The notes under the pieces were generated by a model. It saw only the letters and a program-made list of their open reading frames with translations. It was not told the origin of the DNA and did not search any database. 64,000 bases of DNA from Candidatus Nanosyncoccus alces. Lineage in GTDB: Bacteria > Patescibacteriota > Saccharimonadia > Saccharimonadales > Saccharimonadaceae. The stretch covers positions 124,001 to 188,000 of the forward strand of contig NZ_PRLM01000006.1 in NCBI RefSeq assembly GCF_004138395.1, in the 5' to 3' direction. Position numbers and translations under genes: made by a program. Numbering within the stretch: position 1 is the stretch's first letter; each line of letters opens with the position of its first letter. Below are positions 43,339 through 46,691 of the stretch, in pieces.

Positions 43339-43757
43339 TGGACGGTGGCGTAGTGATTTTTATTTTGGCAATCTTAATTGTCGCAGTTTTTATATTCGTA
43401 GCAATTTTACTAACTGGCAAACGTGGGCACCATTTTAATATGGAGGCTTACCAGGCAAGGTTTTTGGCGATTGAAAATAAATTAAACAAAGAGAATTCTG
43501 CGACTTTCATGACTACGATTATAGAGGCGGACAAATTACTGGATAAGGCATTAATGGAAATGGGTGTTCCGGGCAAGACTATGGGTGATAGACTGAAAAG
43601 GTCAGGAGATAAATTTACCGACGTTAATGCTGTATGGCGCGCACACAAATTGCGTAACGCTATAGCGCATGAAGCAGATTTAGAGATCGGGTACAAACAG
43701 GCGGCCAATGCCATTGCGATTTACAAACAAGCCTTAAAAGATTTAGGAGCAATTTAA
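43338..43757 (+). CDS. membrane-anchored HEPN-like protein inside the gatCAB operon
   Basis: The family is not recognised with certainty. One N-terminal helix (about 5-26) precedes a helical domain of about 105 residues. Near its end, RAHKLRNAIAHEADLEI contains R106-N-A-I-A-H111, an Rx4H pattern like that of HEPN RNases and nucleotide-binding HEPN proteins. ATG overlaps the gatA stop, and the stop overlaps the gatB ATG, so it is tightly embedded between two amidotransferase subunits. Catalytic activity is inference; many HEPN proteins are inactive binders. Confidence 0.6.
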   Translation: MDGGVVIFILAILIVAVFIFVAILLTGKRGHHFNMEAYQARFLAIENKLNKENSATFMTTIIEADKLLDKALMEMGVPGKTMGDRLKRSGDKFTDVNAVWRAHKLRNAIAHEADLEIGYKQAANAIAIYKQALKDLGAI

Positions 43758-45169
43758 TGAAATATATTCCAACGATCGGTATTGAGTGTCACGTGCAACT
43801 AGCAACAAAGACAAAGCTATTTTCGGAAGTGGACAACGACGCTAGGAATAAAGAGCCGAATTCTTGTGTATCTCCGGTAGATTACGCTCTGCCTGGGATG
43901 TTACCACGATTAAACGGTGAGGCGATAAAATTTGCAATCTTAGCAGGAAAGGCAATGAACTGCGAAATTAACGCTTCCTCTAGGTTCGACCGTAAGCATT
44001 ATTTTTACCCGGATTCACCTAAAGGTTATCAGATCACTCAATTCTATCATCCGATCATCGGTGCAGGGTACGTAGAACTCCCGTCGGGGACGAAAATTCG
44101 GATAGAGCACGCGCACCTGGAGGGTGACGCTGGGAAGCTGACGCATTTCGATACGTACTCTCTGGTAGATCTGAATCGTGTAGATACACCGCTAATTGAA
44201 ATCGTCTCCATGCCAGATATCCATTCTGCTAAGGATGCGCACGACTATTGCAAAGAGCTGTGGAGACTGATGACTTTTGCGGGGGTGTCCTATGGCGACC
44301 TCTATAACGGAAATATGCGTTTCGACGTAAATGTTTCGCTCGCGCCGGAAGGAAGTACAGAACTAGGGACCAGAGCCGAGATAAAGAACTTGAACTCTTT
44401 TAGATCAGTAGAGCGAGCTGCAGAGTACGAAATTGTGCGCCAGAGTAAGCTTTTGGATGCTGGCGAAAAAATAATCCAGGAAACTCGCGGTTGGAGCGAT
44501 GATACTGGCAAGACTACTGGGCAGCGTTCAAAAGAAGAGGCAAAAGATTATAGGTATATGCCAGAGCCGGATTTACCACCAGTTAATCTTTCAGCTGATT
44601 TTATACAAGAAGTAGCGGAAAAATTGCCGTTAATGCCCGCAGATTATCGTAGGAAGTTTGGCGATTCGCTTAAAACCGAAATTCTAGAAATTTTGTTAGA
44701 CTATCCGGAATTAATTAGAAAGCTATCTGAAGTCGACGAAAAATATGTAGTAACTGTTTCCAACCTGTTTACATCGGTACTGTTAGCAGAAGAAAAATCA
44801 GCAGAGTACCTGAATGATTTACCAACAGCAAAACAGCTAAACGATCTGGCTAAGATGAACGAAAAGAAAGAGCTCAGTTCTACTGCCACAAAAGAGGTAT
44901 TTTTGCATTTGTTTGATCCACAAATGAGGAGACGCGATACTGAAGTAATTGCCAAAGAGCTAGGCTTGATCCAAGAGAACGATTTAGGCGCGCTGGAAAC
45001 CATTGTGGACGCGGTGCTAGCAAAACCAGAGACCCAGGAGGCTCAGGCAGATTTTCGCGCTGGGGAAGAGAAGGTGATCGGATTTTTGGTGGGTCAAGTA
45101 ATGAAGGAGTCCCACGGTAAAGCCAACCCGTCCGCCGTGCAAGAAATTTTGCGAAAAAAGCTGGCTTAG
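43757..45169 (+). CDS. gatB: Asp/Glu-tRNA(Asn/Gln) amidotransferase subunit B
   Basis: GatB binds the mischarged tRNA and phosphorylates its Asp/Glu. IGIECHVQLATKTKLF, NSCVSPVDYALPGMLP, FDRKHYFYPDSPKGYQITQ and KDYRYMPEPDLPP are family hallmarks, and a C-terminal YqeY-like domain is present (about 400-470). With gatC and gatA it forms the transamidation route to Gln-tRNA and/or Asn-tRNA. No terminator is visible before the RNA promoter at 45174. Confidence 0.96.
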   Translation: MKYIPTIGIECHVQLATKTKLFSEVDNDARNKEPNSCVSPVDYALPGMLPRLNGEAIKFAILAGKAMNCEINASSRFDRKHYFYPDSPKGYQITQFYHPIIGAGYVELPSGTKIRIEHAHLEGDAGKLTHFDTYSLVDLNRVDTPLIEIVSMPDIHSAKDAHDYCKELWRLMTFAGVSYGDLYNGNMRFDVNVSLAPEGSTELGTRAEIKNLNSFRSVERAAEYEIVRQSKLLDAGEKIIQETRGWSDDTGKTTGQRSKEEAKDYRYMPEPDLPPVNLSADFIQEVAEKLPLMPADYRRKFGDSLKTEILEILLDYPELIRKLSEVDEKYVVTVSNLFTSVLLAEEKSAEYLNDLPTAKQLNDLAKMNEKKELSSTATKEVFLHLFDPQMRRRDTEVIAKELGLIQENDLGALETIVDAVLAKPETQEAQADFRAGEEKVIGFLVGQVMKESHGKANPSAVQEILRKKLA

Positions 45170-45173
45170 ACTA

Positions 45174-45202
45174 TTGACAGATAATACTAGATGCGATAAG
45201 AT
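45174..45202 (+). promoter_or_regulatory. promoter of the large non-coding transcript
   Basis: TTGACA (45174-45179), 17 bp, TAAGAT (45197-45202). Transcription would start near 45209, five bases after the gatB coding region plus the promoter, with no gene in front. Confidence 0.8.
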
Positions 45203-45208
45203 ATTCTG

Positions 45209-45825
45209 TACAGGGGCGTGATTCCGCCCCTTGTGCTGTTAAAAACGATTGTATTTCATCCGCCCGAAAAAAACTCGTGACATTGAGCCGTCGTTTGCGT
45301 GAGTACTCACGCCCTTAGCTCAGAAGGGAGGAGAAGGGATTGATCCGTATTTTCTTTCCGATAGTGATAGAAATGCCCACCTACACGGAGGCAATTTCTA
45401 CGTTCGGCAGAAATTTGGCGCCATTACCGGTAATTACTTCGATCTACGCGCCTCGTCCCAGAGTGGATCAATTTTACCGTAAGCTGGTTCCGAACTAGCT
45501 TTAGAGGTTACTGGATATTTTTCTGAATAATCACCTCTTTTTTCGGTAACCTCGGTGGTAATCCACAAGCATTTGTTTGCTCGATAAGCAGACAACCCAC
45601 ACAATTTCAAAACAATATATAGACAACTCGTTTAATACAGCACCTCGTACCTTAGCAGGCAGTTCGTCCGCGGCTAGAAGTCCGCCGCAAGACCGGCTGG
45701 AGAAACAATCGGGCATTTTGCCCATAGCATAAGATGTTAAAGTAAATAGCGTGAAGACGACTCCCCGGAAGAGGCTTTTATATGCCTGCTAACATTACCC
45801 CAGTACAGCCAGTACTGGGGTTTTT
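45209..45825 (+). ncRNA. candidate large structured non-coding RNA (~617 nt)
   Basis: No plausible coding frame fills this 780-bp gap, but many exact pairings do. Examples: AGGGGCG/CGCCCCT (45212-45218, 45225-45231), AAACGA/TCGTTT (45243-45248, 45291-45296), GCGTGAG/CTCACGC (45297-45312), CCCTT/AAGGG (45312-45328), and a long-range ATTGATCC/GGATCAAT (45339-45346, 45465-45472) enclosing TAGAAAT/ATTTCTA and ATTACCGGTAAT. Others are AAGCTGGTT/AACTAGCTT (45481-45501), GTTTGCT/AGCAGAC (45575-45593) and TTAGCAGGCA/TGCCTGCTAA (45652-45661, 45783-45792). It lacks the conserved motifs of tmRNA, RNase P RNA, SRP RNA and 6S RNA as I know them. It has its own promoter and terminator. Confidence 0.7.
45798..45825 (+). 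terminator. intrinsic terminator of the non-coding transcript
   Basis: CCCCAGTAC (45798-45806), 5-nt loop, GTACTGGGG (45812-45820), T5. Confidence 0.93.
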
Positions 45826-45862: not shown

Positions 45863-45891
45863 TTGACAATTTTAAATATGTGTGGTATAAT
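45863..45891 (+). promoter_or_regulatory. promoter of the 45951 gene
   Basis: TTGACA (45863-45868), 17 bp, TATAAT (45886-45891), with GTGTGG before the -10. Confidence 0.88.
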
Positions 45892-45950: not shown

Positions 45951-46691
45951 ATGAAAGAAGAAAAGGCAAAAGGCATATTAAAAAGAATAGGGAAATTCTT
46001 TCACAAAATTTCCCAGATGAGAGAGAAGAGAAAGGCAAAGAAGCGATGCGGAGACTATCACTTCAGAAAAAAGTGGAGCAAAAGAGCAAAAAGTTTTGTC
46101 CTGCAACCATATGTGTACTTCGCTGCGCCCGTCTCGAAGGTGATGTTCTGTCAGCTATATGGCGTAGTAGAGTATTACGAGGCATATAGCGAGGAATACA
46201 CACTTCGTGCGGCAAACCTTGCAAAAGCTTTGATCAGAGACGTATATACACCAGATGTGCTCCCCGTGGTAACATGCGGTCGTGTTTTGAGCGATTGGGA
46301 GTCTATGAGTCTTATTAATGACGAGCTTTTCAATTTATTGTGCCAATACGGAGGGTATAATGTTGTGTTCCACAATCAAGACACTAAGCTGCCTCGTAAC
46401 GTGACGGCCGACATAGTACTCAACAAAAATCTTTTCTTGACGAGAAAGAGACACGGAATGCCCTTGAGAACATTTCTTCTTTGGGCCGAAGGCGGCGTAA
46501 AGATACCACCCGAAATCCTGACTGAGTGGTCTGGCATACCGGCGGGACGATTTGGCGTGGCTTATGATGAAATTGTTAACCTTTTTAGGCAGACAATCAG
46601 AGCTGAGCATCGCGCAGAAATCGCCAGAGGTACAACCGCCAGTGCACGGGCACGCAGTAGATTACGAAACCCGAACGTTATTTTCGTCTGA
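45951..46691 (+). CDS. hypothetical basic protein (246 aa)
   Basis: The family is not recognised. The first ~60 residues are very Lys/Arg-rich (KEEKAKGILKRIGKFFHKI), suggesting nucleic-acid or membrane-surface binding. The middle part (about 65-200) is globular with hydrophobic patches (YVYFAAPVSKVMF, VLPVVTCGRVL), and the C-terminus is Arg/Ala-rich. GAGGTG precedes ATG by about 8 nt. Codon use is of the accessory type. It follows the non-coding RNA with its own promoter and terminator, so a functional link is possible but not shown. Confidence 0.65.
   Translation: MKEEKAKGILKRIGKFFHKISQMREKRKAKKRCGDYHFRKKWSKRAKSFVLQPYVYFAAPVSKVMFCQLYGVVEYYEAYSEEYTLRAANLAKALIRDVYTPDVLPVVTCGRVLSDWESMSLINDELFNLLCQYGGYNVVFHNQDTKLPRNVTADIVLNKNLFLTRKRHGMPLRTFLLWAEGGVKIPPEILTEWSGIPAGRFGVAYDEIVNLFRQTIRAEHRAEIARGTTASARARSRLRNPNVIFV

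What the first reader, a model, noticed from the sequence alone, without database searches (positions are those of the whole stretch)
45209..45825. A ~617-nt stand-alone structured RNA of no recognised class
A 780-bp gap between gatB and the next gene has a TTGACA-17-TAAGAT promoter at its start and a 9-bp intrinsic terminator at its end. Between them lie at least ten exact complementary pairings, including long-range ones (45339-45346 with 45465-45472; 45652-45661 with 45783-45792). No plausible coding frame is present. I do not find the conserved motifs of tmRNA, RNase P RNA, SRP RNA or 6S RNA. The size and multi-domain layout recall the class of large ornate bacterial RNAs (OLE, ROOL, GOLLD), but I cannot match a specific one.
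Basis: partly seen in the sequence, partly recalled or inferred. Interest (0 to 1): 0.85.

Follow-up and report, generated by a model that had tools for sequence, protein, structure and literature searches.

The report
Structured RNA that encodes a peptide
Next to two protein-synthesis genes, gut Saccharibacteria carry an undescribed RNA of about 620 letters whose folded shape is kept by evolution and which, in most relatives, also encodes a very short, fast-changing protein, so it looks like a two-job RNA and not the purely non-coding one first reported.

Summary
The transcription unit looks real: promoter at 45174-45202, terminator at 45797-45825, no Rfam match; tmRNA and RNase P RNA lie elsewhere in this genome. 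The claim 'no coding frame' is wrong. A TTG-start ORF with a good ribosome-binding site (45340-45498, 52 aa) has relatives in at least 14 other genomes of the genus, always between gatB and fusA. dN/dS is 0.18-0.41 in six of seven pairs (0.92 in the seventh), and every clear member ends in Pro-x-stop. The structure is also real. Three relatives keep H1, P2, linker, P3 and terminator (about 250 nt) without the ORF, so the scaffold probably has a role of its own. Best reading: a new family of dual-function RNA (scaffold plus peptide mRNA), so far found only in one largely ruminant-gut Saccharibacteria genus. The molecular function is inferred, not shown. It is not tmRNA or RNase P RNA, has no detectable match to OLE, ROOL or GOLLD, and is not a typical type I toxin locus.

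The parts
45174..45202 (+). promoter: TTGACA, 17 nt, TAAGAT; transcription start inferred near 45209
   Evidence: promoter also present at the same place in homologues
45212..45231 (+). H1, 5' hairpin (GGGGCG/CGCCCC)
   Evidence: arm-swap tests
45233..45248 (+). P2 closing helix, 5' arm (GTGCTGTTAAAAACGA)
   Evidence: pairs 4-6 covary
45324..45333 (+). ribosome-binding site (AAGGGAGGAG)
   Evidence: sequence; conserved in homologues
45340..45498 (+). 52-aa ORF, TTG start, TAG stop: MIRIFFPIVIEMPTYTEAISTFGRNLAPLPVITSIYAPRPRVDQFYRKLVPN
   Evidence: profile hits and dN/dS
45504..45553 (+). hairpin just after the stop (GAGGTTACTG/CGGTAACCTC)
   Evidence: similar post-stop hairpin in most homologues
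45628..45643 (+). P2 closing helix, 3' arm (TCGTTTAATACAGCAC)
45644..45654 (+). conserved linker between P2 and P3 (CTCGTACCTTA here; about nTCCGCACnTTA in relatives)
45652..45661 (+). P3, 5' arm (TTAGCAGGCA)
45783..45792 (+). P3, 3' arm (TGCCTGCTAA)
45797..45825 (+). intrinsic terminator
   Evidence: present in all homologues

Best explanation
Positions about 45209-45825 form one short, self-contained transcript with two conserved products. The first is a folded scaffold: H1, closing helix P2, a conserved linker, P3, terminator. The second, in most members, is a peptide (52-68 aa in the well-aligned members) encoded inside the P2-closed domain. The most likely working is a dual-function RNA: P2 ties the 5' and 3' parts together and, with P3, gives a stable RNA that acts through its exposed linker or loops, by base-pairing or by binding a protein; the same RNA can be translated into a peptide whose conserved start and Y-x-K-x-x-P-x-stop tail are its functional parts. 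Shown here by sequence: conserved position, selection on the protein, helix covariation, scaffold kept without the ORF. Inferred: transcription and translation in vivo, a separate scaffold function, and all molecular targets.
For: Peptide profile finds new members at E 1e-16 to 1e-25, all in the gatB-fusA gap. dN/dS 0.18-0.41 in six of seven pairs; pooled pN/pS 0.17 / 0.56 / 0.17 for start / middle / end of the ORF. P2 probability 0.80-0.98 in seven of eight A-type members, P3 0.67-0.99 in eight of eight. Arm-swap tests: 0 of 200,000 re-pairings as stable as the true ones for H1, P2 and P3 (for eight members). Three ORF-less members (G022, G053, G034) keep H1, P2, linker, P3 and terminator and fall in one supported GatB set.
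Against: No expression data. The ORF-less set is one small group, so the ORF may have been lost recently and the scaffold may still be decaying. In L116 P2 is not favoured in the full-length fold (0.01). The B-type members share peptide and place, but their helices could not be shown to be the same. Many genus members lack the whole element, so it is dispensable. The arm-swap tests treat related sequences as independent, and I chose the arms by eye.
Confidence: 0.5

Rival explanations
1. A small-protein gene whose structured leader and 3' UTR only control stability or translation of its own mRNA. The peptide is the only product that matters, and the ORF-less copies are decaying relics.
For: Both ends of the peptide are under purifying selection; the ORF is present in most members; the start region is largely paired in the folds (TIR unpaired 0.11-0.51).
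Against: Three ORF-less members, 71% identical at best, keep P2 and P3 by compensatory change. The peptide middle is poorly constrained and no fold is predicted.
Confidence: 0.3
2. A nascent-peptide (arrest or leader-peptide) switch: the ribosome stalls at Pro-x-stop, opens the hairpin after the stop and changes transcription of the downstream gene, usually fusA.
For: Pro-x-stop in every clear member, lengths from 15 to 68 aa, a hairpin a few nucleotides after the stop; fusA is usually next. TnaC stalls through a C-terminal proline (PMC10941005), and attenuators are predicted before fusA in streptococci (PMC2965389).
Against: 286-406 nt separate the stop from the end of the terminator in full-length members; fusA, or here the 45951 gene, has its own promoter after the terminator; the N-terminus is conserved too; the TnaC proline is the last residue, here it is the last but one.
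Confidence: 0.12
3. A type I toxin-antitoxin locus: a toxic peptide mRNA kept silent by 5'-3' pairing and an antisense RNA.
For: 5'-3' closing helix, short ORF, largely paired start region.
Against: No membrane helix (19-residue hydropathy at most 1.54) and no antisense promoter in the window RNA or consistently in relatives.
Confidence: 0.04
4. A purely non-coding RNA; the ORF is chance.
For: Three relatives lack the ORF.
Against: Low dN/dS, synonymous changes at conserved residues, conserved ribosome-binding sites, in-frame stops directly before the start in some members, profile E-values to 1e-25.
Confidence: 0.03

Closest known systems
Dual-function RNAs, e.g. Staphylococcus aureus RNAIII (with the delta-hemolysin ORF) and SgrS/SgrT
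   Same: A structured, stand-alone RNA of similar size (RNAIII is 514 nt, from memory) that also encodes a short peptide
   Different: No sequence relation seen; no trans target known here; the peptide is unrelated; a scaffold that survives loss of the ORF was seen here
Type I toxin mRNAs (hok, AapA1)
   Same: Short ORF inside an mRNA closed by 5'-3' pairing, start region partly hidden
   Different: Peptide is not a membrane helix; no antisense RNA signal; scaffold occurs without the ORF
Arrest-peptide leaders (TnaC, SecM)
   Same: Conserved C-terminal residues with a proline next to the stop, structure right after it
   Different: Own terminator and a long 3' UTR; downstream gene has its own promoter; conserved N-terminus; stalling untested
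Large ornate RNAs (OLE, ROOL, GOLLD; PMC12286853)
   Same: Large, structured, of unknown role; ROOL was named for its rumen origin
   Different: No covariance-model match; most members of this family carry a conserved ORF

Membership tests
tmRNA (RF00023) | tRNA-like ends and tag ORF; single copy | tested here: not met
   No hit in the region; the genome's tmRNA is at C4:41327-41680, 77.5 bits
RNase P RNA (RF00010) | Conserved catalytic core | tested here: not met
   No hit in the region; the genome's copy is at C4:36524-36861, 237 bits
OLE, ROOL, GOLLD | Match to the Rfam covariance model | tested here: not met
   cmscan of the region at E up to 5 and of nine homologous loci at gathering score lists none
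Dual-function RNA | Conserved short ORF | tested here: met
   Profile hits and dN/dS
Dual-function RNA | Regulatory action of the RNA apart from the peptide | tested here: inconclusive
   Scaffold kept with compensatory change without the ORF in three genomes; action itself not testable here
Type I toxin-antitoxin | Hydrophobic membrane peptide | tested here: not met
   Highest 19-residue hydropathy 1.54, GRAVY -0.63 to 0.33
Type I toxin-antitoxin | Antisense RNA promoter | tested here: not met
   None in the window RNA; weak, scattered sites in some relatives; sigma-70 consensus only
Arrest-peptide attenuator | Conserved C-terminus at the stop | tested here: met
   Pro-x-stop in every clear member; pN/pS 0.17 in the last 12 codons
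Arrest-peptide attenuator | Terminator controls a gene without its own promoter | tested here: not met
   Consensus promoter 45863-45891 after the terminator
Arrest-peptide attenuator | Ribosome stalling | not testable with these tools
   Needs toeprinting

The most novel reading that the evidence does not exclude
A previously undescribed family of large dual-function RNA in an ultra-small (CPR) bacterial genus: a covarying scaffold with its own role, carrying an optional, fast-evolving peptide gene whose conserved C-terminal tail acts on the ribosome or another conserved partner, kept beside the EF-G gene.
Probability: 0.35. Interest if true: 0.75.

Novelty: new variant of a known kind. Interest (0 to 1): 0.55.

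Why it matters
My searches of open-licence papers on Saccharibacteria, CPR and large bacterial RNAs returned no structured RNA of this kind from this phylum. Within one genus the scaffold of this RNA is held by compensatory change while the peptide gene inside it is kept, rewritten or lost, which gives a natural test of how dual-function RNAs arise and decay. It also shows that a hypervariable short ORF can hide inside what reads as a non-coding RNA.

Tried and rejected
Rfam at gathering and relaxed thresholds: best hits (NsiR1, betaproteobacterial toxic sRNA) rejected as matches to the terminator hairpin. tmRNA and RNase P RNA found elsewhere. MAFFT alignment of the whole A-type RNA too poor for pair counting, and a short arm alignment was misaligned; replaced by arm-swap tests. 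AlphaFold2 model of the peptide (mean pLDDT 55.7) too poor for a fold search. Pfam, NCBIfam, PHROG and PDB sequence searches gave nothing. No DNA match in phage or plasmid records. Start-codon/C-terminal pairing as a conserved translation lock: rejected; 0.46 in the window, 0.20 in L187, 0 in the others. A C/U-rich anti-Shine-Dalgarno tract as a general feature: stands out only in a few members (G022 2 of 300 shuffles, L122 6, L115 7), so not general. A generic scan for closing helices in all gaps was too noisy to call further members.

Full report
OBSERVATION. The gap between gatB (43757-45169) and the next ORF (45951) has a promoter-like site at 45174-45202 and a strong terminator at 45797-45825. 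A second, perfect promoter at 45863-45891 follows the terminator, so the unit appears to stand alone. The region folds better than dinucleotide shuffles on both strands (z -5.2 and -5.3), so the z-score alone says little. Rfam gives nothing at gathering score and only weak hits, the best two on the terminator, when relaxed. The genome's own tmRNA and RNase P RNA are elsewhere.

HOMOLOGUES. The window is part of a 727-kb genome whose relatives are Saccharibacteria. A DNA search of relatives found short matches downstream of gatB in the same genus. Locating gatB in 142 of 147 genus genomes and reading the gatB-fusA gap of many of them showed the element in a minority. The named records are metagenome-assembled Saccharibacteria, many of them from ruminant guts.

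CODING. Every clear homologue has a Shine-Dalgarno-like site followed by a short ORF, mostly with a TTG start. In the window it is 45340-45498, 52 aa. In some homologues an in-frame stop codon lies directly before the start. Profiles of seven and nine members find further members at E 1e-16 to 1e-25, all at the same locus. At least 14 other genomes carry it: eight A-type (G140, G143, G055, G103, G164, G044, G100, G133) and six B-type (G046, G050, G205, G192, G203, G019). dN/dS is 0.18, 0.20, 0.21, 0.32, 0.33 and 0.41 in six pairs and 0.92 in a seventh, L121/L125. Pooled pN/pS is 0.17 for the first 12 codons, 0.56 for the middle and 0.17 for the last 12. The C-terminus follows roughly [FY]-x-Y-[RH]-K-x-x-P-x-stop, with synonymous proline codons CCG, CCA, CCT and CCC all in use. 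More divergent candidates (L152, L169, L056, and the 15-aa ORF of L117) keep Pro-x-stop; one possible member (L183) does not. The peptide matches no Pfam, PHROG or PDB entry and no NCBIfam family at a meaningful score, is not a membrane helix and gets no confident fold (mean pLDDT 55.7).

STRUCTURE. In eight full-length ORF-bearing A-type members folded one by one, the closing helix P2 has probability 0.80-0.98 in seven (0.01 in L116), and P3 has 0.67-0.99 in all eight. P2 pairs 4, 5 and 6 change on both sides between members. If 5' and 3' arms are exchanged between species, only 4 (H1), 12 (P2) and 4 (P3) of 40,320 arrangements are as stable as the true one. With ten members, including three ORF-less ones, none of 200,000 random re-pairings is. 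These counts treat sequences as independent, which overstates significance, and I chose the arms by eye; but P3 has largely different sequences in different members while staying paired. The pair 45339-45346/45465-45472 exists here but is not conserved. The B-type group shares peptide and place. Its consensus fold has 25 of 151 pairs with changes on both sides, but I cannot show that its long-range helices correspond to P2 and P3.

SCAFFOLD WITHOUT ORF. A covariance model of the 5' end found the nine known A-type genomes, one copy each, and a weak hit in G022 (E 0.03), also right after gatB. Reading it and its relatives G053 and G034 showed promoter, H1, a P2 duplex of -20 to -26 kcal/mol, a linker like CGCACCTTA, P3 (GGCGAC/GTCGCC, GGTGG/CCACC, GTAGCAAC/GTTGCTAC) and a terminator, in about 250-290 nt and without a recognisable member of the ORF family. 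A GatB tree puts these three in one supported set of seven. The scaffold thus stayed paired, through compensatory change, in genomes that lack the ORF. That is the best sign that the RNA has a role beyond carrying the peptide. The direction of change (ORF lost or gained) is not settled by the tree.

RANGE. A profile search of 345 genomes of the order found solid matches only in this genus. The same search missed the window's own ORF at its first-look stage, so absence elsewhere is provisional. There is no match in phage or plasmid records and no Rfam hit in nine homologous loci.

MECHANISM. I favour a dual-function RNA (0.5). An ordinary small-protein mRNA with structured untranslated regions is next (0.3). 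An arrest-peptide leader acting on fusA (0.12) fits the C-terminal conservation and the hairpin after the stop, but not the own terminator, the distance or the conserved N-terminus. A type I toxin (0.04) fails on hydrophobicity and antisense RNA. No step of the mechanism beyond conservation of sequence and structure is shown.

LITERATURE. TnaC stalls through conserved residues including P24 (PMC10941005). Attenuators have been predicted before fusA in streptococci (PMC2965389). RNAIII as a dual-function RNA: PMC11237564. GOLLD, ROOL and OLE: PMC12286853. Searches for Saccharibacteria or CPR structured RNAs returned nothing relevant.

Noticed in passing
window 45951-46691 (+): A 246-aa ORF of no Pfam family, with a perfect TTGACA-17-TATAAT promoter (45863-45891). 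Similar proteins (a basic N-terminus, then a W-S-x-x-A-K-like stretch) sit in the same gatB-fusA gap in several other genomes (e.g. L158, L161, L177).
   Followed up: partly
gatB-fusA gap across the genus (L047, L051, L052, L054, L068, L137): Many genomes without the element still have a consensus-like promoter after gatB and a terminator before fusA with 40 to 400 nt between, as if the unit had shrunk or been replaced. The gap also holds varied unrelated genes.
   Followed up: partly
L159 and L190 (gatB-fusA gap): ORF-less RNAs in which a Shine-Dalgarno-like purine run (AAAAGAGGAGAAC; AAAGAGGGGAACA) pairs with a C/U run just before the terminator (-22.7 kcal/mol each).
   Followed up: no
5' leader of fusA in many loci (e.g. 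L140, L141, L121): A conserved stretch like GTCTTGTTTTTGAGTGTGGAGCT lies between the fusA promoter and its start codon; possibly a leader element of its own.
   Followed up: no
L121, L118, L125: 3' UTR of the B-type RNA: Several CTCCTTTC or ACCTCC stretches (complement of the Shine-Dalgarno site); the consensus fold pairs one of them with the ORF's own ribosome-binding site.
   Followed up: partly
L117 (G008), gatB-fusA gap: A 15-aa ORF, MKFTRFYYRRIMAPG, at the same place, made of little more than the conserved C-terminal motif; only one genome seen.
   Followed up: no
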